Of a stretch of DNA of 64,000 nucleotides, positions 5,185 to 41,410 are shown piece after piece. This DNA is from Arenibacter sp. F26102 (GTDB taxonomy: Bacteria > Bacteroidota > Bacteroidia > Flavobacteriales > Flavobacteriaceae). The position numbers and the translations under genes were made by a program. Under the pieces are notes generated by a model. It saw nothing but the letters and a program-made list of their open reading frames with translations. It searched no databases and had not been told where the DNA came from. Location: positions 124,770 through 188,769 of the forward strand of contig NZ_JALKBC010000004.1 in assembly GCF_023015865.1 (NCBI RefSeq). Direction: 5' to 3'. How positions within the stretch are numbered: position 1 is the stretch's first letter; the number at the start of each line of letters is the position of its first letter.

Positions 5185-5436
5185 TTTATTTGGCACAGCT
5201 ATTGTCAAAGTTAGCATAATTAAAACTCTAAGTAGGACCACTTCAATTTTTAGGTTTTCATTTTTCATGGATTGAATTACCTTAAAGAATAAATGAACAT
5301 ATACTACTTCACCAAATTCTTAAACCACGAATATTTTATTTTACACAACATTTAATGCACCGTTTACATCATTTATTGTGGCTGGGAATGCCCATTAATT
5401 ACCTTGAACCTTAATTAAATCAATGTATCCCCCATG

Positions 5437-6129
5437 ATGAAATTGAGATGTATAATAGTGGACGATTCGTTCTTGCAGCGAACTGCCGTATCCCGATTAG
5501 TGAACAATCATCCGAACTTGGCAATGGTAGCCGAATACGGTAATGCCATTGAAGCAAAAAATGGTCTAAAAAATAATGAGATCGACCTTATTTTCCTCGA
5601 TGTGGAAATGCCCATCATCAGTGGTTTTGATCTTTTGGAATCTTTGGACAACCCACCACAGGTAATTTTGATTACCGGTAATCCGGATTATGCACTCAAG
5701 GCTTTCGATTACAACGTAACCGATTATCTTTATAAGCCCATTTCCCTAGCTCGATTTAATGCCTCCGTAAAAAGGGCCGTGGCCGAATATGAGCAGATTA
5801 ATAAATTGGATGAAGATGAGGAGTATATCTTCGTTAAAAGTAACCTTAGACAGCGAAAAGTTGTTCTGAACGACATTAACTGGGTCGAAGCTCTCGGCGA
5901 TTACATTAAATTGGTAACGACTGAAGGCAATGTCGTTATCCTTTCCACCATGAAATCTTTTGAACAAAAGTTACCGAAGGAGAAATTTCTAAGGATTCAT
6001 AAATCCTATATAGTTAATTTGGAAAAAGTTGAAAAGTTCAACAGTAAAAAAGTTGAAGTAGCTGGCACAATGGTGCCACTGAGCAGACACAAAAAAACGG
6101 AATTGGCCGAGGCGCTTTATAACGTTTAA
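5437..6129 (+). CDS. LytTR response regulator (block A copy)
   Basis: A 230-residue two-domain regulator. Residues 1-120 are a receiver: acidic pair in IIVDDS, phospho-acceptor Asp in IFLDVEMP, Thr in VILITGNP and Lys in YKPIS. Residues 135-230 are a LytTR DNA-binding domain (FVKSNLRQRKVVLNDINWVE, then FLRIHKSYIVNLEKV). ATG-ATG occurs at 5434; the second aligns with the only start of the 37.6 kb copy and is chosen. No histidine kinase is adjacent. A strong terminator follows. Its upstream region (from about 5320) is also recognisable upstream of the second copy. Confidence 0.92.
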   Translation: MKLRCIIVDDSFLQRTAVSRLVNNHPNLAMVAEYGNAIEAKNGLKNNEIDLIFLDVEMPIISGFDLLESLDNPPQVILITGNPDYALKAFDYNVTDYLYKPISLARFNASVKRAVAEYEQINKLDEDEEYIFVKSNLRQRKVVLNDINWVEALGDYIKLVTTEGNVVILSTMKSFEQKLPKEKFLRIHKSYIVNLEKVEKFNSKKVEVAGTMVPLSRHKKTELAEALYNV

Positions 6130-6154
6130 ATTGTAGGGCCTAATGTGTAGTATA

Positions 6155-6190
6155 AAATATCGGGGGGCATACCCCCGATATTTTTTTATG
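6155..6190 (+). terminator. Rho-independent terminator after LytTR A
   Basis: AAATATCGGGGG pairs with CCCCCGATATTT around a GCATA loop, followed by a run of T. It ends transcription of the regulator 25 bases after its stop codon and separates it from the convergent thiamine-type operon. The same hairpin is kept in block B at 38.3 kb. Confidence 0.9.
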
Positions 6191-6262
6191 TCATTTTAAT
6201 TATTTGTTCATTTTGTAGAAGGAAAACCTTTACATCATTGTTTGATCAGGGATAATTCTAAT

Positions 6263-6547
6263 CTAGTTTTCTATTGGTAGAGGCTCGGTAAGGCGAAAAT
6301 TTTCAAATGTCTTACCTTTCAAATGTTTTTGCCATTTTTCGACCAATGGTCGTTCTAGTTTAAACTCACGAAATTCGTCCGGGCTCATAATCGGTATTCC
6401 TTTTACTATTGGGTATAATCGATTGCAGGATGAGCAGACAAAAAAGCCTTCCAATATATTATCATTTACATCTTTTGTGATTTCTGTTAGACTAAGGTCC
6501 GCTTTGTCAAATGGACAGCAAAGTTTATGGATAGTTTCTATTTTCAT
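6263..6547 (-). CDS. Trm112-like small zinc protein (block A copy)
   Basis: A 94-residue Trm112 family protein. Seen: LCCPFDK near the N terminus (Cys11, with Asp14 where many members have Cys), FFVCSSCNRLYPIVKGIPIM (Cys38 and Cys41), a metal-site layout typical of bacterial Trm112/YcaR-like proteins. In eukaryotes and archaea Trm112 binds and activates several class I SAM methyltransferases; bacterial roles are poorly defined. It is the last gene of a TPP-riboswitch operon whose first gene is a class I methyltransferase, so an activator role is plausible. Its ATG overlaps the TGA of the ThiE-like gene (ATGA). The C-terminal third (WQKHLKGKTFENFRLTEPLP) is family-specific and unassigned. Confidence 0.82.
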   Translation of the reverse strand: MKIETIHKLCCPFDKADLSLTEITKDVNDNILEGFFVCSSCNRLYPIVKGIPIMSPDEFREFKLERPLVEKWQKHLKGKTFENFRLTEPLPIEN

Positions 6548-7191
6548 TTTTTATTTAATTTTTCTAAATATTTTCTAATGGATTCATTGGGTTTGTTTGT
6601 GCTCATAATACCTGATACCACGGCAATTCCTGTATATTTAAGTTCATCTAGTTGATGTACGTTTTCCGGTTTTATTCCACCAGCTAAATAGATGGGCAAT
6701 CCATAGTTTCTTGCGGTATCATGGATGGTACTAAAATTTACAATTTCACAACTGTTGGCCGTTTGTGAAGGAAATATGGAACAGAATGAGATATAGTCGA
6801 GCTTGTTCCTACTTGCCCATTCCACGTGGGTTAGATCATTGTTGCACGTAAGTCCGCTTATAAAAGGTTGGATAACGCTTCCTTTTATTTGTGTATAATT
6901 CTCTGGGATTACGTCAAAATGGACTCCATCCAATAAGGAACTATTGAGCAGTTCCCATCTATTGTTTACCAATACTGGAACATTTTTAGCATGGCATTGT
7001 TCGCAAATCTTATTGATCAGTTCAATTATGTTTTGGTTATCTTTAAAATTATCCCAAATCTGAACAGCAGCTAGTTTTTCTCTTAGACATAAGTTTAATT
7101 TATTCAATAGAATTGATTTGTCCATCGAAGGGTCGATAATCAAATAGATTCCGGAACCCATGGTTCTTTTTTCACTCCCAATTATTTCCAT
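6544..7191 (-). CDS. ThiE/TenI-like TIM-barrel protein (block A copy)
   Basis: A 215-residue TIM-barrel protein of the thiamine-phosphate synthase superfamily. Seen in order: AAVQIWDNF (position of the canonical VQLREK), VPVLVNNRWELLNSS (canonical NDR region), DGVHFDVIPENY (canonical DGVHLGQED), YISFCSIFPSQT (canonical GPVFPTxTK) and LAGGIKPENV (canonical GGI). The fold is clear, but the Arg and Lys of QLREK that bind diphosphate in ThiE are replaced. It may therefore use a different substrate or act like TenI, an aminotautomerase. It overlaps the AIR-synthase-like gene by 10 bases and the Trm112 gene by 4, so translation is coupled. The TPP riboswitch upstream links it to thiamine. Confidence 0.8.
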   Translation of the reverse strand: MEIIGSEKRTMGSGIYLIIDPSMDKSILLNKLNLCLREKLAAVQIWDNFKDNQNIIELINKICEQCHAKNVPVLVNNRWELLNSSLLDGVHFDVIPENYTQIKGSVIQPFISGLTCNNDLTHVEWASRNKLDYISFCSIFPSQTANSCEIVNFSTIHDTARNYGLPIYLAGGIKPENVHQLDELKYTGIAVVSGIMSTNKPNESIRKYLEKLNKK

Positions 7192-8237
7192 CCCGAATTG
7201 AATGCTTTAAAAAATGCCGCCCAGTATGGGTCGTTCTCATTGTACAATAAGTCATTTGCTATATCATTTGTAATGAGTTTTACACCTTCGTGCTTATGGA
7301 CTATTTCACCCACTTTTGAGCAGAAGATATTTTCCTTGGCCAGGCGATTGATAACTTTTTTTGGACTTCCTTTTTTACAGGTAATGATCATGGAACCAGC
7401 ACCAATACAGTAACGGGGATCTAACGAAAACAAGTTACAAACTTCATTTTGTAGATTGCCAATGGGTAGTTTGTCATTATATATAAAAGCTCCGTTGTCG
7501 GAGGCAATTGCCAATTCATATATTGCCCCCAAAACTCCTCCCTCCGTAACATCGTGCATGGCGGTTACATCGTTATGTTCGCGGTTTTGTCCTACTGCGG
7601 CCAGAGCGTCTTCAAGGGAAGATGTTTGATAAAAAGTGGCGCATGCCTGTTGTTGCATTTCAGAACCCAGTTTGTTCTTGACCGTTTCAGGAAAGCACAT
7701 GGCAAGTATTGCCGTCGAAGAAATAGCACATGGTTTGGTCACAAGGACCACATCGCCCGGCTTAGCATATTTAGAAACCAACATGTTATTTTTAGGAGCA
7801 ATACTAATAAATGTACCACCGCCTGCTATGGTCGAATTTTGTCCTTCGATAAAACCAGTATGCCCACCCGTAATGGCAATTCCGATTTTGGAACAAAAGC
7901 GGTGGATGTAGTCCCAATAGGTCTGAAAATCCGATTTTGAAAAATTACTTGGTAGATTTAGAACAAACTGCCCATACATGGGGGCATATCCCGTTGTTGC
8001 CATGTCATTTGCCATCAATTGAACAGATAGCCAAGCGGATTCTTCCAAACCCAGGCTTGGAAGTAAGGTCAGCGGGTCACTGGTCATGGCCATGGCCATT
8101 GTTCCGGGCAAATCTACAATGGAAACATCAACACCAAATTCAGGACCAATGCTTACTTCCTCCCTATTAAGACCACATTTATTACTGATAAACTGCTCAA
8201 ATACATGTGGGTCTATTTTCCCAAGTTTGTCGCTCAT
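7182..8237 (-). CDS. AIR-synthase/ThiL-like ATP-binding enzyme (block A copy)
   Basis: A 351-residue protein of the PurM/HypE/SelD/ThiL superfamily. Residues about 25-140 form the ATP-binding AIRS domain (MTSDPLTLLPSLGLEESAWL, QLMANDMATTGYAP, ITGGHTGF). Residues 160-330 form the C-terminal domain, with PGDVVLVTK and HDVTEGGVLGAIYEL. ThiL, which phosphorylates thiamine monophosphate, has this fold, but here the GDD motif near residue 30 is absent and the sequence is closer to HypE-like or unassigned AIR-synthase-related proteins. It starts one base downstream of the methyltransferase stop. The reaction is unknown; ATP use is expected from the family. Confidence 0.8.
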   Translation of the reverse strand: MSDKLGKIDPHVFEQFISNKCGLNREEVSIGPEFGVDVSIVDLPGTMAMAMTSDPLTLLPSLGLEESAWLSVQLMANDMATTGYAPMYGQFVLNLPSNFSKSDFQTYWDYIHRFCSKIGIAITGGHTGFIEGQNSTIAGGGTFISIAPKNNMLVSKYAKPGDVVLVTKPCAISSTAILAMCFPETVKNKLGSEMQQQACATFYQTSSLEDALAAVGQNREHNDVTAMHDVTEGGVLGAIYELAIASDNGAFIYNDKLPIGNLQNEVCNLFSLDPRYCIGAGSMIITCKKGSPKKVINRLAKENIFCSKVGEIVHKHEGVKLITNDIANDLLYNENDPYWAAFFKAFNSGWK

Positions 8238-8960
8238 TTATTTTACGTCGTTTAGTTTGATGTACAATCCGAAAAAATCCCCGAAAGGGAGACTCCATTG
8301 TTGAAACGGAAACCATTTAGGTAGGCCCGTACATGTCCATTCAATGGAGTAATCGCGTCCTTGAAGAGCCTCTTCTATAATTTTGGCAAGTTTTTCCGGC
8401 GTATAGAAGGTAGCGGTCAAATAGAAAGGATTCATGCCAAATACTTCTTGTATCCTTCTTCTCACCACCTTGGTCGAATTTCTGTTCATCATTCCCATTG
8501 CAATTCCATATTTCCCAACACGTGCAGCCTCACGAATTACTTGCACAGGGTCCTTGTAATATTCAAATGTGGTAATAAATGCAAGGGAATCAAAGGTGTG
8601 GTCTTTAAAAGGCATATGATGAGAGTCGGCCATAACAAGGTCGCCGTCAAATAAGTGTACCGCCTGGGAAAGCATAAGTGGTGATATATCACCACCAGTT
8701 GCCTCTATGCCTATCTCTTTCCACCAGCGGGTAAAACGCGTTGTGCCACAGCCAAACTCCAATAATGTTTTAACACGTTTGTCTTTTGACACTAATTGTT
8801 CCATCACTTTTTTCTGCCATATTTCGGCTCGCTTGTATCTGCCTTCATACCATTGTTCGTAGGTATCGGTATGTTCTCTGTTAAAAAACCATTCTGGTCT
8901 GTTTTGCCAATTTTGGTCTTCCTGAGGAATAAGTTCTGCAGTTGTTTTTTGTATTTCCAT
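8238..8960 (-). CDS. Class I SAM-dependent methyltransferase (block A copy)
   Basis: A 240-residue methyltransferase. Motif I is LLEFGCGTTRFTRWW (about residues 66-80); an acidic residue after motif I is in TGGDISP; motif II is MADSHHMPFKDHTFDSLAF; motif III is IREAARVGKYGIAMGMM. The N-terminal 60 residues (RPEWFFNREHTDTYEQWYEG) are unlike UbiE/MenG. It is the first gene after a TPP riboswitch with its own attenuator and is followed by AIR-synthase-like, ThiE-like and Trm112 genes. Substrate is unknown; the regulation argues for a thiamine-related molecule. The block B copy at 40.4 kb differs at only about ten positions by eye. Confidence 0.85.
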   Translation of the reverse strand: MEIQKTTAELIPQEDQNWQNRPEWFFNREHTDTYEQWYEGRYKRAEIWQKKVMEQLVSKDKRVKTLLEFGCGTTRFTRWWKEIGIEATGGDISPLMLSQAVHLFDGDLVMADSHHMPFKDHTFDSLAFITTFEYYKDPVQVIREAARVGKYGIAMGMMNRNSTKVVRRRIQEVFGMNPFYLTATFYTPEKLAKIIEEALQGRDYSIEWTCTGLPKWFPFQQWSLPFGDFFGLYIKLNDVK

Positions 8961-8975
8961 TTTATATGTTTTAAA

Positions 8976-9013
8976 ACAAAAACTCCATTCTCTGGAGTAC
9001 CAAGGAATGGAGC
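8976..9013 (-). terminator. Riboswitch expression platform: intrinsic attenuator
   Basis: On the minus strand, GGCTCCATTC and GAATGGAG form a stem directly followed by TTTTTG, about 15-50 bases upstream of the methyltransferase start and just downstream of the TPP aptamer. This is a Rho-independent terminator, so TPP binding is expected to stop transcription before the operon. The stem is preserved in block B with a different loop. Confidence 0.85.
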
Positions 9014-9032
9014 CTAAAATGGAATATTTTAG

Positions 9033-9118
9033 TTTGCATCCCTACGTTGGCATTATCCAAATCAGGTTTCGGGTGTTATCTCAGCTTGGCTTTAACCAGG
9101 CACCCCGTGCTTTTGTGT
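9033..9118 (-). promoter_or_regulatory. TPP riboswitch (THI element, block A)
   Basis: Minus-strand sequence carries the THI-box signatures in order: ACGGGGTGCC, GCTGAGAT, ACCCGAAACCTGATTTGGAT and AATGCCAACGTAGGGATGC. These are the pyrimidine-sensing and diphosphate-sensing arms of the TPP aptamer. It precedes the methyltransferase gene with an attenuator between. A TACATTT box about ten bases upstream fits a Bacteroidota -7 element. Effectively identical copy at 41.2 kb. Confidence 0.97.
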
Positions 9119-9582
9119 TGATAAATGTACGATAAAAATTTAAAATTCTTAGCTATACTAAATGTTTCAAGAAGGTAAGTTTAGGTACTTAAGTTTCTAT
9201 TGAGAGTACCTATAATAATTGTACTTGGAAGGCGCAGCCTTTAGGAAACGGCACTGAACATGATTCCTGGATGCAAGGGAAAAGGGTTTAGTACAAGTTG
9301 TGCTGGCTGGAAGACTCGAGTGTCAGATGTTTCAAATGTATCGGGATTTATTTCCGTTACATTGCCATTTAGTATAAAAAGGGTCATTGCAGATGCAATA
9401 ACCCTTTTTATACTAATATGTTAACGGCTAGAATTAGAGCCGCAATAAGAACTCAATACTGGCCAGTTGTCCGAATAATGTATGGTCCATCGACAATAAA
9501 GAAATTATTATGGCAGAAGATAATAGGAACTATGAAATTCACCCCTGGTGCTTTTTGAGTTGGTTTCATACAAACAATGCTC
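9119..9582 (-). other. Intergenic region between riboswitch and cysI
   Basis: About 460 bases without a convincing gene. It holds the TPP operon promoter (about 9119-9170) and the strong hairpin at 9371-9414. Between them a minus-strand frame of about 41 codons ending near 9246 looks coding-like (TDTRVFQPAQLVLNPFP) but has no start codon, so it may be a gene-end relic that I cannot assign. Confidence 0.4.
9371..9414. terminator. Strong bidirectional hairpin terminator
   Basis: AGTATAAAAAGGGTCATTGC and GCAATAACCCTTTTTATACT form a 20-base-pair stem with one mismatch and a 4-base loop. T-rich flanks occur on both strands. It lies 170 bases after the cysI stop and should insulate the sulfite reductase operon from the TPP operon. 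Confidence 0.85.
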
Positions 9583-37131: not shown

Positions 37132-37570
37132 AATCCTTTTATTTTCAATTGTCATAAATTTATTCATAAGATTAATTTTTTGTTTCACCTTTTTTTGATG
37201 CTTATCTAAGCCAAAAAGATGGCCGAGACTTATTAATTAGCCTTGTTGTACGCCTTCGTTCACATAAGTAATACCGCCCTGGCCCCTTCTACCCTTCTAC
37301 CCTTCTGCGACTGTTTAAGAGGTGACAATAATCTGCGTGCCAGAATACATAGATTATTAATAAACAAATATTGTAATTAAACTTAAATATTTATTCGCCA
37401 ATAATCCCCGAAATCTGATCTGGCCGCTTATTTGAAGAATCTTAAACCAAATGCCTTGACCACAAATATCATCATTTACACAACATTTAATACGGGGTTC
37501 ACATCATTTTTAATGGCTAGGGATGCCAATTAAGTACCTTCAACTTGATTTAAACGAGGAATCAACTATT
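37132..37570 (+). other. Upstream region of LytTR B with small tandem repeat
   Basis: About 440 bases. From roughly 37445 it resembles the region upstream of LytTR A (ACACAACATTTAAT, then CACATCATTT and GGGATGCCAATTAA), so the duplication includes the promoter. At about 37283-37308 the octamer CCCTTCTA/G occurs three times in a row, with no known role. Confidence 0.5.
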
Positions 37571-38263
37571 ATGAAATTAAGAAGTATAATCGTAGACGAT
37601 TCGTCTATGCAGCGGATTGCCGTAGCCAAATTAGTGAACAAGCATCCTAACCTTATAATGGTAGCCGAATACAGCAATGCCATTGAAGCAAAAAACGGTA
37701 TTAAAAATAACGAGATCGATCTAATTTTCCTCGATGTGGAGATGCCGATCATCAATGGATTTGACCTTTTAGAATCCTTGGAAAACCCACCACAGGTAAT
37801 TTTGATCACCGGTAATCCAGAATATGCCCTTAAGGCTTTTGATTACGATGTTACGGACTACCTTCACAAACCCATTACTCTAACACGTTTTGAGGCCTCC
37901 ATAAAAAGAGCCATTACCAAATATGAGCGGATGCAAAATGTGACGGAGGAAGAGGAATATATCTTTGTAAAAAGCAACCTAAAGAAGCGTAAAGTTGTTT
38001 TAAACGATATAAAATGGATAGAAGCTCTTGGCGATTATATTAAATTGGTAACGAATGAAGGCAATGTCGTTATTCTTTCTACTATGAAATCTTTTGAACA
38101 AAAGTTACCTAAGGATAAATTTTTAAGGATACATAAATCCTATATCGTGAATTTGGAAAAAGTGGTAAAGTTCAATAGTAAAAATGTTGAACTCGAAGGT
38201 AGACAGGTACCTTTGAGCAGAAATAAAAAAGACGAATTGGCGGAAGCGCTTTATAACGTATAA
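37571..38263 (+). CDS. LytTR response regulator (block B copy)
   Basis: A 230-residue receiver-LytTR regulator collinear with the one at 5437, with most residues identical by eye. Receiver landmarks IIVDDSSMQR, IFLDVEMPIINGF, VILITGNPEY and LHKPI are kept, and the LytTR domain ends with RQVPLSRNKKDELAEALYNV. A longer frame starts at 37523, but only the ATG at 37571 aligns with the other copy. The terminator after it is also conserved. Both copies are intact, so two regulators may respond to different signals. Confidence 0.92.
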   Translation: MKLRSIIVDDSSMQRIAVAKLVNKHPNLIMVAEYSNAIEAKNGIKNNEIDLIFLDVEMPIINGFDLLESLENPPQVILITGNPEYALKAFDYDVTDYLHKPITLTRFEASIKRAITKYERMQNVTEEEEYIFVKSNLKKRKVVLNDIKWIEALGDYIKLVTNEGNVVILSTMKSFEQKLPKDKFLRIHKSYIVNLEKVVKFNSKNVELEGRQVPLSRNKKDELAEALYNV

Positions 38264-38288
38264 ATTTAGTGGCCTAAAGTATAGATTA

Positions 38289-38325
38289 AAACATCGGGGG
38301 GCATACCCCCGATGTTTTTTTATGC
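38289..38325 (+). terminator. Rho-independent terminator after LytTR B
   Basis: ACATCGGGGG, GCATA loop, CCCCCGATGTTTTTTT. It is the counterpart of the terminator at 6155-6190; the stem is preserved by a compensatory pair of changes (T-A versus C-G) at its base. Confidence 0.9.
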
Positions 38326-38396
38326 AATTTTAAATATTCGCCCATTTTGTATGAGGTTGAGTTATACAAGATTGTATGACCAGAAATAATTCCAAT

Positions 38397-38681
38397 CTAA
38401 TGCTCGTTTAGTTTAGGCTCCGTTAAACGGAAATTTTCAAACGTCTGACCTTTTAAATGTTTTTGCCATCTTTCCACTAATGGTTGTTCTAATTTATACT
38501 CACGGTATTCGTCCGGACTCATAATTGGTATTCCTTTTACTATTGGGTATAATCGGTTACAGGATGAGCAAACAAAAAAGCCTTCCAATATATTATCATT
38601 TACATCTTTTGTGATTTCTGTTAAACTAAGGTCCCCTTTGTCAAATGGACAGCAAAGTTTATTGATCGTTTCTAGTTTCAT
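38397..38681 (-). CDS. Trm112-like small zinc protein (block B copy)
   Basis: A 94-residue protein nearly identical to the block A copy. Cys11, Cys38 and Cys41 are conserved (LCCPFDKGDLS, VCSSCNRLYPIVKG), and Asp14 again takes the place of a fourth ligand. Differences are conservative, mainly in the last 30 residues. The 4-base overlap with the ThiE-like gene is kept. Confidence 0.82.
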   Translation of the reverse strand: MKLETINKLCCPFDKGDLSLTEITKDVNDNILEGFFVCSSCNRLYPIVKGIPIMSPDEYREYKLEQPLVERWQKHLKGQTFENFRLTEPKLNEH

Positions 38682-39325
38682 TTTTTATTTATTTTTTCTA
38701 AATATTTTTTAATGGATTCATTGGGGTTGTCTTTGCTCATAATTCCTGATACTACAGCAATTCCGGTATATTTAAGCTCATCTAGTCGATGCATGTTTTC
38801 AGGTTTGATTCCACCTGCCAAATAAATAGGTAAACCATAATTTCTTGACGCATCATGAATGGTATTAAAATTTACAATTTCACAACTGTTGGCTGTTTGC
38901 GAAGGGAAAATGGAACAGAATGAGATATAATCTAGCTTGTTCTTACTTGCCCATTCTACATGGGTTAAATCATTATTGCACGTAAGTCCGCTAATAAAAG
39001 GATGGATAACGCTTCCTTTTAATTGTGTGTAATTCTCTGGAATTACGTCAAAATGTACACCATCCAGCAAGGAATTATTAAGCAGTTTCCATCTATTGTT
39101 TATCAATACTGGAACATTTTTGGCATGGCATTGTCCGCAAATCTTATTGATCAGTTCAATTATGTTTTGGTTGTCATTAAAATTGTCCCAAATTTGAACA
39201 GCGGCTAGCTTTTCCCTTAAGCACATGTTTAATTTGTTCATTAATATCAATTCGTCCATTGATGGGTCGACAATTAAATAGATTCCAGAACCCATGTTTC
39301 TTTTCACCCTACTACTTATTTCCAT
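38678..39325 (-). CDS. ThiE/TenI-like TIM-barrel protein (block B copy)
   Basis: A 215-residue protein collinear with the block A copy. The non-canonical AAVQIWDNF, DGVHFDVIPENY, FCSIFPSQT and LAGGIKPENM segments are all unchanged or nearly so. The retention of the same atypical active-site residues in both copies argues that they are functional and not decay. It overlaps its neighbours exactly as in block A. Confidence 0.8.
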   Translation of the reverse strand: MEISSRVKRNMGSGIYLIVDPSMDELILMNKLNMCLREKLAAVQIWDNFNDNQNIIELINKICGQCHAKNVPVLINNRWKLLNNSLLDGVHFDVIPENYTQLKGSVIHPFISGLTCNNDLTHVEWASKNKLDYISFCSIFPSQTANSCEIVNFNTIHDASRNYGLPIYLAGGIKPENMHRLDELKYTGIAVVSGIMSKDNPNESIKKYLEKINKK

Positions 39326-40371
39326 CCCGAACTAAATGCTTTAAAAAAGGCCGCCCAGTAAGGGTCGTTCTCATTGTACAATAGATCATTTGCTATATCA
39401 TTTGTTACGAGTTTGATACCTTGGTGCTTATGGGTTATTTCCCCCGCTTCTGAGCAGAAGATATTTTCCTTGGCCAAACGATTGATAACTTTTTTTGCAC
39501 TTCCCTCCTTACAGGTAATAATCATTGAACCTGCACCGATGCAGTAACGTGGATCCAAGGAAAACAATCTACATACTTCATTTTGTAGAATGCCTACAGG
39601 TAGTTTGTCATTAAATATAAATGCACCATTGTTGGAGGCAGTTGCCAATTCAAATATCGCTCCCAAAACACCGCCTTCCGTAACATCGTGCATAGCGGTT
39701 ACATCGGTATGTTCGCGATTATGTCCTACCGCGGCCAGAGCGTCCTTTAGGGAAGAAGTTTGATAAAAAGTGGCGCATGCTTGTTGTTGCATTTCAGGAC
39801 CCAGTTTGTTCTTAACCGTTTCAGGGAAACACATAGCAAGTATGGCAGTCGAAGAAATGGCGCATGATTTGGTAACTAATATCACATCCCCAGGTTTCGC
39901 ATATTTTGAAACCAGAATGTTATTTTTAGGTGCAATGCTGATAAATGTCCCACCGCCTGCTATGGTCGAATTTTGTCCTTCTATAAAACCTGTATGCCCA
40001 CCCGTTATGGCAATTCCGATTTTTGAACAAAAGCGGTGGATGTAATCCCAATAAATCTGAAAATCCGATTTAGAAAAATTGCTTGGAAGATTTAGAACAA
40101 ACTGCCCATACATAGGGGCATATCCCGTGGTAGCCATATCATTTGCCATCAATTGCACAGATAGCCAAGCGGACTCCTCCAAACCCAGACTTGGAAGTAG
40201 GGTCAGCGGGTCACTGGTCATGGCCATGGCCATAGTTCCGGGCAAATCCACAACGGAGACATCAACACCAAAATCAGGACCAATACTTACTTCCTCTCTA
40301 TTAGAACCACATTTATTACGGATAAACTGCTCAAACACATGTGGATCTATTTTGCCTAGTTTATAGCTCAT
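39316..40371 (-). CDS. AIR-synthase/ThiL-like ATP-binding enzyme (block B copy)
   Basis: A 351-residue protein of the same length as the block A copy. The motifs MTSDPLTLLPSLGLEESAWL, QLMANDMATTGYAP, ITGGHTGFIEGQNSTIAGGG and HDVTEGGVLGAIFEL are identical or nearly so. Differences cluster in the C-terminal third. Expected ATP-dependent enzyme, substrate unknown. Confidence 0.8.
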   Translation of the reverse strand: MSYKLGKIDPHVFEQFIRNKCGSNREEVSIGPDFGVDVSVVDLPGTMAMAMTSDPLTLLPSLGLEESAWLSVQLMANDMATTGYAPMYGQFVLNLPSNFSKSDFQIYWDYIHRFCSKIGIAITGGHTGFIEGQNSTIAGGGTFISIAPKNNILVSKYAKPGDVILVTKSCAISSTAILAMCFPETVKNKLGPEMQQQACATFYQTSSLKDALAAVGHNREHTDVTAMHDVTEGGVLGAIFELATASNNGAFIFNDKLPVGILQNEVCRLFSLDPRYCIGAGSMIITCKEGSAKKVINRLAKENIFCSEAGEITHKHQGIKLVTNDIANDLLYNENDPYWAAFFKAFSSGWK

Positions 40372-41094
40372 TTATTCTACGTCATTTAGTTTAATGTACA
40401 ATCCAAAAAAATCTCCAAAAGGCAAACTCCATTGTTGAAACGGAAACCATTTAGGTAGGCCTGTACAGGTCCATTCAATAGAGTAATCGCGTCCTTGAAG
40501 CGCCTCTTCTATAATTTTGGAAAGTTTGTCCGGTGTATAGAAGGTTGCTGTTAAATAGAAAGGATTCATGCCAAATACTTCTTGTATTCTTCTTCTTACT
40601 ACCTTGGTCGAATTTCTGTTCATCATTCCCATTGCAATTCCATATTTTCCAACACGCGCAGCCTCACGAATTACTCGTACGGGGTCGTTGTAATATTCAA
40701 ATGTGGTAATGAATGCAAGCGAATCAAAGGTATGGTCTTTAAAAGGCATATGGTGAGAGTCGGCCATAACAAGGTCGCCATCAAATAAATGTACTGCTTG
40801 GGAAAGCATTAATGGGGATATATCACCACCAGTAGCCTCTATACCAATCTCTTTCCACCATCGTGTAAAACGGGTTGTACCACAGCCAAACTCCAATAGT
40901 GTTTTAACACGTTTGTCCTTTGAGATCAATTGTTCCATTACTTTTTTTTGCCATATTTCGGCACGCTTGTATCTCCCTTCATACCATTGTTCGTAGGTGT
41001 CGGTATGTTGTCTGTTAAAAAACCATTCTGGTCTGTTTTGCCAATTTTGGTCTTCCTGAGGAATCAGTTCTGAAGTTGTTTTTTCTATTTCCAT
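40372..41094 (-). CDS. Class I SAM-dependent methyltransferase (block B copy)
   Basis: A 240-residue methyltransferase. Motif I (LLEFGCGTTRFTRWW) and MADSHHMPFKDHTFDSLAF are identical to those of block A; roughly ten substitutions are visible over the whole protein (for example YKDPVQ to YNDPVR). It is the most conserved gene of the duplicated operon. It follows its own TPP riboswitch and attenuator. Confidence 0.85.
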   Translation of the reverse strand: MEIEKTTSELIPQEDQNWQNRPEWFFNRQHTDTYEQWYEGRYKRAEIWQKKVMEQLISKDKRVKTLLEFGCGTTRFTRWWKEIGIEATGGDISPLMLSQAVHLFDGDLVMADSHHMPFKDHTFDSLAFITTFEYYNDPVRVIREAARVGKYGIAMGMMNRNSTKVVRRRIQEVFGMNPFYLTATFYTPDKLSKIIEEALQGRDYSIEWTCTGLPKWFPFQQWSLPFGDFFGLYIKLNDVE

Positions 41095-41110
41095 TTTATA
41101 TTATTTAAAA

Positions 41111-41149
41111 CAAAAACTCCATTCTTTGGGGTAACCAATGAATGGAGCC
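41111..41149 (-). terminator. Riboswitch attenuator (block B)
   Basis: On the minus strand GGCTCCATTC pairs with GAATGGAG, followed by TTTTTG, just downstream of the aptamer. It is the counterpart of 8976-9013 with a diverged loop, indicating selection on the stem. Confidence 0.85.
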
Positions 41150-41168
41150 TAAAATGAAATATCTTAGC

Positions 41169-41253
41169 TTGCATCCCTACGTTGGCATTATCCAAATCAG
41201 GTTTCGGGTATTATCTCAGCTTGGTTTTAACCAGGCACCCCGTGCTTTTGTGT
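41169..41253 (-). promoter_or_regulatory. TPP riboswitch (THI element, block B)
   Basis: Minus-strand signatures ACGGGGTGCC, GCTGAGAT, ACCCGAAACCTGATTTGGAT and AATGCCAACGTAGGGATGC are all present, as in block A, with the only changes in variable loops. The TACATTT box upstream is also conserved. Confidence 0.97.
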
Positions 41254-41410
41254 TGATAAATGTACGATTAAAATTTAAAATTCTATACTGTCCTTAATAT
41301 TTCACATAGGTATATTCCAGAACTTGAATGTCTATTGAAGGTCCTTATAAAAATTGTACTTGTTAGGTGCTGCTGCTGTGAAAGGTAGCCGCAATTAATC
41401 TTTGGGGAAG
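41254..41410. other. Junction between riboswitch B and the membrane-protein relic
   Basis: About 155 bases with no feature recognised. In block A the corresponding interval spans more than 10 kb and includes cysI, cysJ, prx, lysR and many small genes. Confidence 0.4.

What the first reader, a model, noticed from the sequence alone, without database searches (positions are those of the whole stretch)
5320..9120. Thiamine-riboswitch operon pairing a methyltransferase with Trm112 and thiamine folds
The operon encodes a class I SAM methyltransferase, an AIR-synthase/ThiL-like ATP enzyme, a ThiE-like TIM barrel and a Trm112-like zinc protein, behind a clear TPP riboswitch with an intrinsic attenuator. 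Established: TPP riboswitches control thiamine genes, and Trm112 activates several class I methyltransferases in eukaryotes and archaea. Inference: Trm112 activates the methyltransferase here, and the set acts on a thiamine-related molecule, perhaps in salvage or modification. None of the usual thiC/thiG/thiD genes is present, so it may be a new branch of thiamine metabolism.
Basis: partly seen in the sequence, partly recalled or inferred. Interest (0 to 1): 0.9.

Follow-up and report, generated by a model that had tools for sequence, protein, structure and literature searches.

The report
Four-gene operon under vitamin-B1 riboswitch
A marine bacterium carries, twice, a conserved four-gene operon switched by a vitamin-B1 sensor RNA; the carriers tested lack key B1-making genes, so it is probably an undescribed way of recovering or finishing vitamin B1.

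Summary
Window 6263-9117 (minus) has a TPP riboswitch, a terminator and four abutting genes: a class I methyltransferase (MT), a PurM/HypE-like ATP enzyme, a ThiE-fold barrel and a Trm112-like zinc protein. The LytTR gene at 5434-6129 is separate.

All 24 Bacteroidota loci mapped keep the gene order behind a TPP riboswitch (23 above Rfam's cut-off). In 395 sampled genomes, the own one included, the MT and PurM-like genes hit the same 13. ThiC: 0 of 20 carriers tested; full-length ThiG: 0 of 20. In 12 of 12 distant carriers another TPP riboswitch (one below cut-off) precedes a TonB receptor.

It is no plain ThiE-ThiL operon. The barrel folds like ThiE but lacks Arg59, Lys61 (Arg in one) and Lys159 in 22 of 22, and has invariant Cys137, Cys148, Glu149. 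The ATP enzyme fails ThiL and HypE cut-offs.

Best reading: a TPP-repressed module of thiamine auxotrophs that converts a scavenged B1-related compound into thiamine (phosphate). Substrate, chemistry and MT-Trm112 pairing are inferred. Two full-text searches for the combination returned no paper.

The parts
9022..9117 (-). TPP riboswitch aptamer (copy A)
   Evidence: Rfam RF00059, 62.0 bits, E 9.1e-10, full model 1-105
8980..9015 (-). intrinsic terminator hairpin followed by a T tract, between aptamer and first gene
   Evidence: -18.7 kcal/mol, z -4.26, 0 of 200 shuffles as stable; also in the terminator scan at 8998-8982
8238..8960 (-). class I SAM methyltransferase (MT), 240 aa, most conserved member (73.5% mean pairwise identity over 22 loci, minimum 57.8%)
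   Evidence: Pfam Methyltransf_11 1.5e-16; 105 invariant columns in 22 sequences; means
7182..8237 (-). PurM/HypE-superfamily ATP enzyme (AIR-synthase family), 351 aa
   Evidence: Pfam AIRS and AIRS_C; below the cut-offs for ThiL, HypE and SelD
6544..7191 (-). ThiE/TenI-fold barrel, 215 aa, with invariant Cys137, Cys148 and Glu149 and without ThiE's basic residues
   Evidence: Pfam TMP-TENI 1.1e-27; model pLDDT 88.9; best PDB match B. subtilis ThiE, TM 0.81; residue counts
6263..6547 (-). Trm112-like zinc protein, 94 aa
   Evidence: Pfam Trm112p 32 bits over cut-off 22; NCBIfam NF038101 57.8 bits, below cut-off 77
41157..41252 (-). TPP riboswitch aptamer (copy B)
   Evidence: Rfam RF00059, 63.1 bits
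41114..41150 (-). intrinsic terminator hairpin (copy B)
   Evidence: -18.3 kcal/mol, z -4.56
40372..41094 (-). methyltransferase, copy B
   Evidence: 96% identical to copy A; dN/dS 0.047
39316..40371 (-). PurM-like enzyme, copy B
   Evidence: 92% identical to copy A; dN/dS 0.079
38678..39325 (-). ThiE-fold barrel, copy B
   Evidence: 87% identical to copy A; dN/dS 0.098
38397..38681 (-). Trm112-like protein, copy B
   Evidence: 87% identical to copy A; dN/dS 0.143

Best explanation
The four genes form one TPP-repressed module of thiamine-auxotrophic Bacteroidota that turns a scavenged thiamine-related compound (a vitamer, a precursor half or a damaged form) into thiamine or thiamine phosphate. 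Shown: the operon, the riboswitch with terminator, the conserved four-gene unit, purifying selection on every gene, absence of ThiC and of full-length ThiG in the 20 carriers tested, and a TPP riboswitch before a TonB receptor gene in the 12 distant carriers. Inferred: that TPP represses it (from the riboswitch and terminator; expression was not measured). When TPP is low the terminator is relieved and the TonB receptor and the four proteins are made. The methyltransferase, held and activated by Trm112, methylates a small molecule so that a group becomes a good leaving group or is restored. The PurM-like enzyme uses ATP to phosphorylate or activate a second group. The ThiE-fold barrel makes or breaks the pyrimidine-thiazole bond with a Cys/Glu pair instead of a pyrophosphate leaving group. 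TPK or ThiL then finishes TPP. Confidence by layer: dedicated four-protein unit serving thiamine supply, about 0.85; salvage or conversion of a scavenged compound rather than full synthesis, about 0.45 (the figure given below); MT-Trm112 complex, about 0.7 from family knowledge; the individual chemical steps, about 0.2.
For: Riboswitch and terminator in both copies. Riboswitch upstream of the set in 24 of 24 loci: 2 in the window, 8 in Arenibacter, 14 more distant (one of the 14, L050, is below the gathering score at 47.8). Same gene order in 24 of 24. MT and PurM-like genes found in the same 13 of 395 genomes, the own one included, by two separate scans. dN/dS 0.05-0.14 between the two window copies. 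Correlated divergence of the four proteins, r 0.85-0.95, over 22 loci. ThiC in 0 of 20 carriers but 2 of 10 non-carrier Arenibacter; strong ThiG matches only in those same two genomes. Another TPP riboswitch directly precedes a TonB receptor gene in 12 of 12 distant carriers (11 above the gathering score; G333's is 41.1 bits and its receptor shows only the Plug domain) and in G000 (44.8 bits, below it) (receptor domains). Barrel closest to ThiE, with Arg59 and Lys159 gone in 22 of 22 and invariant Cys137, Cys148, Glu149. Three of three Haloarcula plasmid homologues of the PurM-like protein lie, divergently, beside a thiamine-binding protein and a thiamine ABC substrate-binding protein. One Arenibacter isolate is listed among measured B1 auxotrophs (PMC12448291, passages read; its operon status is unknown).
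Against: A scavenger of intact thiamine does not need the module: 8 of 10 operon-free Arenibacter also lack ThiC, as do 77 of 77 members of family f38 without the PurM-like gene, so it is an accessory. What the TonB receptors carry is unknown. No known B1 salvage route uses a SAM methyltransferase (my recall). Other plasmid homologues of the PurM-like protein lie beside cobalamin genes (2 of the 4 Haloferax records were looked at), near hydrogenase genes (Acaryochloris) and by an alkaline phosphatase (1 of 13 Halobacterium records looked at), so its superfamily is not thiamine-specific. The Cys/Glu idea rests on conservation only, and the loss of Lys159 rests on an alignment: 3 of 22 sequences have a Lys one column earlier, and one has Arg at the Lys61 column.
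Confidence: 0.45

Rival explanations
1. A ThiC-independent route that makes thiamine (or one of its halves) de novo from central metabolites, with the methyltransferase supplying a carbon.
For: The 20 carriers tested have no ThiC and no full-length ThiG, yet keep a whole TPP-riboswitch-led enzyme set. In the 12 distant carriers its barrel is the only TMP-TENI protein matched over most of the family.
Against: Distant carriers also have a TPP riboswitch before a TonB receptor gene, and one Arenibacter isolate needs B1 (operon status unknown). Four proteins seem few for de novo synthesis of either ring. Close relatives without the set also lack ThiC.
Confidence: 0.17
2. The module makes a modified (for example methylated) thiamine derivative with its own role, as a coenzyme variant, store or antivitamin, and TPP only signals the supply state.
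For: A methyltransferase is the best conserved member and the first gene. The kinase-type and ThiE-type proteins could act on thiamine or TMP itself.
Against: Induction at low TPP is odd for an enzyme set that consumes thiamine. By eye, no export or toxin gene recurs beside it in the 14 loci outside Arenibacter; a LytTR regulator recurs in 5 of 8 mapped Arenibacter loci besides both window copies.
Confidence: 0.13
3. A TPP-sparing substitute: enzymes that replace a TPP-dependent step when TPP is short, as B12 riboswitches control B12-independent MetE.
For: Riboswitch logic allows it; the set is accessory and patchy.
Against: Two of the four proteins have folds used in the thiamine pathway. No TPP-dependent step is known to me that such enzymes would replace.
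Confidence: 0.1
4. Ordinary but diverged ThiE and ThiL (TMP synthase and kinase) with two passenger genes.
For: Pfam and fold matches to ThiE; partial sequence matches to ThiL.
Against: ThiE site residues Arg59, Lys61 and Lys159 are replaced in 22 of 22 (Arg at the Lys61 column in one). ThiL 68.9 bits against cut-off 184.15, while a real Arenibacter ThiL scores 311. The MT is kept in 24 of 24 loci and has the lowest dN/dS of the four genes in 8 of 9 pairs compared (two pairs had one value that could not be computed).
Confidence: 0.07

Closest known systems
TPP-riboswitch thiamine operons of Bacteroidetes (thiSEGCHF-tenI, OMthi, pnuT-tnr3; PMC5613172, passages read)
   Same: TPP riboswitch leader; TonB receptor and PnuT-type transporter in the same regulon; a ThiE/TenI-fold protein
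   Different: No thiC, thiG, thiH, thiF or thiS at the locus; a methyltransferase, a Trm112 protein and a PurM-like enzyme instead
ThiE, thiamine phosphate synthase (B. subtilis 1g69)
   Same: Fold (TM 0.81, 22% identity); Gln57 and the Gly of the Gly-Gly-Ile loop kept in 22 of 22
   Different: Arg59, Lys61 and Lys159 replaced in 22 of 22 (Arg at the Lys61 column in one); new invariant Cys137, Cys148, Glu149; Trp46 and Trp79 in 21 of 22
TenI, thiazole tautomerase (B. subtilis 1yad, 3qh2)
   Same: Same fold family (TM 0.74-0.77), no HMP-PP site needed
   Different: 53.6 bits against a family cut-off of 251; the invariant cysteines are not in the two TenI-type proteins aligned here
ThiL / HypE / SelD / archaeal 'AIR synthase family protein'
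   Same: PurM superfamily, with AMHDVTEGG and NDMATTG-type motifs; highest-scoring plasmid kin are Haloarcula proteins, 29-31% identity
   Different: Below the ThiL, HypE and SelD cut-offs; no C-terminal cysteine such as in L015-L017, which look like HypE by eye
Trm112-methyltransferase holoenzymes (Bud23, Trm9, archaeal Trm112; roles recalled)
   Same: Small zinc protein encoded with a class I methyltransferase. The MT profile matches an 18S rRNA guanine-N7 methyltransferase (the Bud23 orthologue, name recalled) at 4e-7 to 8e-7, behind three other methyltransferases; the Trm112 profile best matches 6zxw_H and 6f5z_C (archaeal Trm112 by recall, deposited as uncharacterised and UPF0434) and TRM112-like chains at 0.017
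   Different: Known partners methylate RNA or proteins (recall); here the setting is a vitamin regulon, and the Bud23 match covers only part of the SAM core

Membership tests
TPP riboswitch (RF00059) | covariance-model score above gathering, full-length aptamer, upstream of genes | tested here: met
   62.0 and 63.1 bits, positions 1-105 of 105; terminator downstream
TPP riboswitch (RF00059) | TPP-dependent change of expression | not testable with these tools
   needs an experiment
ThiE thiamine phosphate synthase | TIM-barrel fold of the TMP-TENI family | tested here: met
   PF02581 97 bits; TM 0.81 to 1g69
ThiE thiamine phosphate synthase | NCBIfam equivalog score TIGR00693 of at least 145.1 | tested here: not met
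   90.6 bits
ThiE thiamine phosphate synthase | HMP-PP site Arg59, Lys61, Lys159 (B. subtilis numbering and role recalled; columns fixed by the aligned ThiE of G009) | tested here: not met
   22 sequences: W 21, Y 1; N 14, H 6, T 1, R 1; S 15, T 7; 3 of 22 have a Lys one column before the Lys159 column
ThiE thiamine phosphate synthase | forms TMP from HMP-PP and thiazole phosphate | not testable with these tools
   needs an assay
TenI thiazole tautomerase | NCBIfam NF005819 score of at least 251 | tested here: not met
   53.6 bits
ThiL thiamine-phosphate kinase | TIGR01379 score of at least 184.15 | tested here: not met
   68.9 bits; a genuine ThiL of the genus scores 311
HypE | TIGR02124 score of at least 251.6 and C-terminal Cys (the latter recalled) | tested here: not met
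   71.6 bits; C-terminus GWK in both window copies
PurM/AIRS superfamily | both AIRS domains over Pfam cut-off | tested here: met
   37.5 over 24 and 67.9 over 23.1 bits
Trm112 family | Pfam PF03966 over cut-off and cysteines for zinc | tested here: met
   32 over 22 bits; CCP and C..C invariant in the 22-sequence alignment; zinc itself not tested
Trm112 family | NCBIfam archaeal equivalog NF038101 score of at least 77 | tested here: not met
   57.8 bits
Trm112-dependent methyltransferase | physical complex and activation by Trm112 | not testable with these tools
   no complex prediction available; the MT model alone is poor
Canonical TPP-regulated thiamine biosynthesis operon | presence of thiC and thiG in locus or genome | tested here: not met
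   ThiC 0 of 20 and full-length ThiG 0 of 20 carriers tested

The most novel reading that the evidence does not exclude
A new way of joining or rebuilding vitamin B1 without HMP pyrophosphate: a Trm112-activated methyltransferase turns a pyrimidine (or thiazole) donor into a cationic leaving group, a PurM-like kinase phosphorylates the partner, and a ThiE-fold enzyme that has swapped its pyrophosphate site for a Cys/Glu pair transfers the pyrimidine through a cysteine-bound intermediate. That would be thiaminase-type chemistry (recall) run for synthesis on a ThiE barrel, and the first Trm112 holoenzyme known to me to act on a vitamin.
Probability: 0.2. Interest if true: 0.92.

Novelty: new variant of a known kind. 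Interest (0 to 1): 0.75.

Why it matters
Thiamine pathways look complete in textbooks, and auxotrophy is routinely called from missing thiC. A conserved, TPP-riboswitch-led four-gene unit in genomes that such a rule would call auxotrophs would mean that part of B1 metabolism, and with it cross-feeding in the sea, is misread. It could also be a first case of a Trm112 methyltransferase linked to a vitamin, and a ThiE barrel with a different kind of active site. The system is small, duplicated in a cultured genus and directly testable.

Tried and rejected
Ordinary thiE-thiL operon: rejected because both proteins fail the family cut-offs and the ThiE site residues are gone.

Chance neighbourhood: rejected by 24 of 24 conservation and by the identical sets of 13 of 395 genomes.

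A general replacement for ThiC: weakened, because most thiC-free relatives examined also lack the set (8 of 10 operon-free Arenibacter are thiC-free; 77 of 92 in f38 lack both).

Pseudogene or decaying duplicate: rejected by dN/dS of 0.05-0.14 between copies (own Nei-Gojobori script; dS is near saturation in the more distant pairs).

Led nowhere: the structure of the methyltransferase (pLDDT 51.6), not interpreted. The genome-contig scan used weak peptide patterns and found 9 loci, all Bacteroidota, so other phyla were reached only through plasmid records; one of these, Acetoanaerobium, had no annotation at the match. Plasmid matches of the MT (two looked at) showed no thiamine neighbour.

Papers: (the combination) and one search returned no paper. 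Searches returned listings in which I saw no title or abstract start describing this operon; I opened only two papers, for passages. Absence from print is claimed for these searches of open-licence papers only.

Not settled: ThiD was judged from PF08543, which also matches other kinases; one carrier, G306, has a strong match. ThiL was not surveyed in carriers, and TPK was not found by PF04263 in any of 18 Arenibacter, so how Arenibacter makes TPP from thiamine is open. The genomes of L055 and L059 were not searched for thi genes.
Full report
What is there. The minus strand of window 6263-9117 reads, from its 5' end: a full TPP aptamer (9022-9117; 62.0 bits, cut-off 54.3), a strong terminator hairpin with a T tract (about 8980-9015), then four genes that abut or overlap by 4-10 bases. 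They encode a class I SAM methyltransferase (MT, 240 aa), a PurM-superfamily ATP enzyme (351 aa), a ThiE/TenI-fold barrel (215 aa) and a Trm112-like zinc protein (94 aa). The two copies, with the LytTR gene, form one block at 86.9% identity over 3924 alignment columns (window 5311-9227 and 37446-41362). Every gene is under purifying selection between the copies: dN/dS 0.047 (MT), 0.079, 0.098 and 0.143.

Where it occurs. Seven of the nine named loci found are from Arenibacter, at up to 97% identity, so the host is an Arenibacter or near kin. In the genus, 8 of 18 genomes (own genome included) have the set; two of the 8, the own genome and G003, have two copies. In an even sample of 395 Bacteroidota genomes, the own one included, 13 have the PurM-like gene (E <= 1e-30). 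A separate scan with the MT profile (E <= 1e-20) hits the same 13 and no other. In family f38 of the phylum, 15 of 92 genomes have the PurM-like gene, one of them as a fragment at a contig end; six of these 15 were not examined for neighbours. I mapped 24 loci: 2 in the window, 8 in seven other Arenibacter genomes, 14 elsewhere. All 24 have the order MT, PurM-like, barrel, Trm112 (in L055 and L060 the Trm112 gene was found), and all 24 have a TPP riboswitch upstream. One of these (L050, 47.8 bits) is below the gathering score. By eye, no fifth gene recurs in the 14 loci outside Arenibacter. In Arenibacter the LytTR gene lies beside it in L031-L035 and a CRP-type gene in L031-L034; L070 also has weak LytTR-like and CRP-like genes some 2 kb upstream. 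Divergence of the four proteins is correlated over 22 loci (L033 and L034, near-copies, left out; r 0.85 to 0.95). A tree of the four joined proteins groups the Algoriphagus copy with L035 and the window copies (100/99; order inside unresolved); a transposase fragment lies about 1 kb from it. This suggests transfer between lineages.

What carriers lack. Across 20 carriers tested, ThiC was found in 0 and a full-length ThiG in 0. Among 10 operon-free Arenibacter, 2 have both, and in the one read, G009, they lie in an ordinary thi cluster. ThiG matches in the other genomes are partial, 19-32 bits. A strong PF08543 match (ThiD type, 171 bits or more) was found in one carrier, G306, and in the two thiC-positive genomes. 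In the 12 distant carriers the operon's own barrel is the only TMP-TENI protein matched over most of the family; nine of them have a further partial match of 22-28 bits, two of these over Pfam's cut-off. Some Arenibacter carriers have another TMP-TENI protein. Thiamine pyrophosphokinase (PF04263) was found in 11 of 12 distant carriers and in 0 of 18 Arenibacter; at least one operon-free Arenibacter has a true ThiL (311 bits). In family f38, ThiC was found in 0 of 92 genomes, some of them incomplete, so the module is an accessory of lineages without ThiC rather than a universal replacement. In 12 of 12 distant carriers another TPP riboswitch lies directly before a TonB receptor gene (domains). 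Eleven of these riboswitches are above the gathering score; that of G333 is not (41.1 bits). In the own genome the other two precede a TonB receptor (44.8 bits, below cut-off) and a PnuC/PnuT-type transporter (54.8 bits). Four further riboswitch matches (39-53 bits) had no gene of 150 aa or more close behind on their strand (L126, L129, L130, L131); others, such as one at 54.3 bits in G420, were not followed.

What the proteins are. The barrel's model is good (pLDDT 88.9) and its best PDB matches are B. subtilis ThiE (TM 0.81-0.83, 22% identity), with TenI further down. In 22 of 22 sequences the columns of ThiE residues Arg59, Lys61 and Lys159 hold other residues: Trp 21 and Tyr 1; Asn 14, His 6, Thr 1, Arg 1; Ser 15 and Thr 7 (residue numbers and roles recalled, columns fixed by an aligned Arenibacter ThiE). 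Against this, three of 22 have a Lys one column before the Lys159 column, and one keeps a basic residue at Lys61. New invariant residues are Cys137, Cys148 and Glu149; Cys116 is kept in 20 of 22, Trp46 and Trp79 in 21 of 22. The PurM-like enzyme has both AIRS domains but scores 68.9 for ThiL (cut-off 184.15) and 71.6 for HypE (cut-off 251.6). Of 72 plasmid records with a match, the highest-scoring are 'AIR synthase family' proteins. Three of three Haloarcula copies lie, divergently, beside a thiamine-binding protein and a thiamine ABC substrate-binding protein. Two of four Haloferax records were looked at, and both lie beside cobalamin genes; the Acaryochloris copy and one of 13 Halobacterium records looked at lie elsewhere. 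The MT is the most conserved protein (73.5% mean identity, 105 invariant columns in 22 sequences). Its profile matches part of the SAM core of an 18S rRNA guanine-N7 methyltransferase (Bud23, a Trm112 partner, by recall), but three other methyltransferases score better; that is weak support for a Trm112 complex. Its lone model is poor and says nothing either way.

How it most likely works. Shown: a riboswitch-led unit, inherited whole, in genomes without ThiC and full-length ThiG; the 12 distant carriers also have a TPP riboswitch before a TonB receptor gene. Inferred: at low TPP the receptor and the four proteins are made, and together they convert a scavenged B1-related compound to thiamine or its phosphate. 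In the model I prefer, MT-Trm112 methylates a group to make it a leaving group or to restore it, the PurM-like enzyme spends ATP on the other half, and the barrel forms or breaks the bridge bond with cysteine and glutamate. Thiaminases use such a pair, which I recall and did not test. An Arenibacter isolate (E3M18) is listed among B1 auxotrophs, with a half-saturation near 0.17 nM (PMC12448291, passages read). Its operon status is unknown, so it neither proves nor refutes the model.

Compared with the known. The TPP regulon of Bacteroides thetaiotaomicron has thiSEGCHF-tenI, OMthi and pnuT-tnr3 operons (PMC5613172, passages read; the word methyltransferase was not found in its main text). Full-text searches for the combination returned no paper; other searches gave only listings without a matching title or abstract start. 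The parts are known folds; the set, its regulation and the altered ThiE site are not described in what I could search. I therefore rate it a new variant of a known kind (a TPP-regulated thiamine-supply operon), with a real chance of being new chemistry.

Limits. Phyla other than Bacteroidota were reached only through plasmid records. The carriers' ThiL status, the receptors' cargo, the TPP response, the complex and all chemistry are untested.

Noticed in passing
window 5311-9227 and 37446-41362: The riboswitch operon and the convergent LytTR regulator are duplicated as one 3.9-kb block, 86.9% identical; a related species (G003) also has two copies.
   Followed up: yes
window 5434-6129 (+) and 37523-38263 (+): A LytTR response regulator lies convergent to the operon in L031-L035 but not in L036-L038; a strong hairpin (6154-6184) separates the two in the window.
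   Followed up: partly
L006:5775-7362 (-) and L125:1447-3037 (+): TPP riboswitch followed by a PnuC/PnuT-type transporter and an overlapping flavin monooxygenase / acyl-CoA-dehydrogenase-like gene, in the own genome and in a distant carrier (G376): possibly another uncharacterised thiamine-related gene.
   Followed up: partly
L128:5797-8536 (-) and L132:3431-6131 (+): A further TMP-TENI protein encoded next to a FadH/old-yellow-enzyme-type flavoprotein in two Arenibacter genomes.
   Followed up: partly
L124:4603-6249 (-): In G376 a 215-aa protein without Pfam or NCBIfam match lies beside a ROK kinase in the stretch downstream of a TPP-riboswitch TonB receptor gene; by eye it recalls a diverged thiamine pyrophosphokinase.
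   Followed up: partly
G000 and 17 other Arenibacter genomes: No thiamine pyrophosphokinase (PF04263) was found in any of 18 Arenibacter genomes, so how they turn imported thiamine into TPP is unclear.
   Followed up: partly
L055:3988-4209: The Algoriphagus alkaliphilus copy, which groups with Arenibacter copies, has a transposase fragment about 1 kb away, suggesting recent transfer.
   Followed up: partly
L134, L137, L138: Haloarcula plasmids carry a homologue of the PurM-like enzyme beside thiamine-binding and thiamine-transport genes (3 of 3).
   Followed up: partly
family f38 (92 genomes): No ThiC found in any of 92 genomes of one Bacteroidota family.
   Followed up: no
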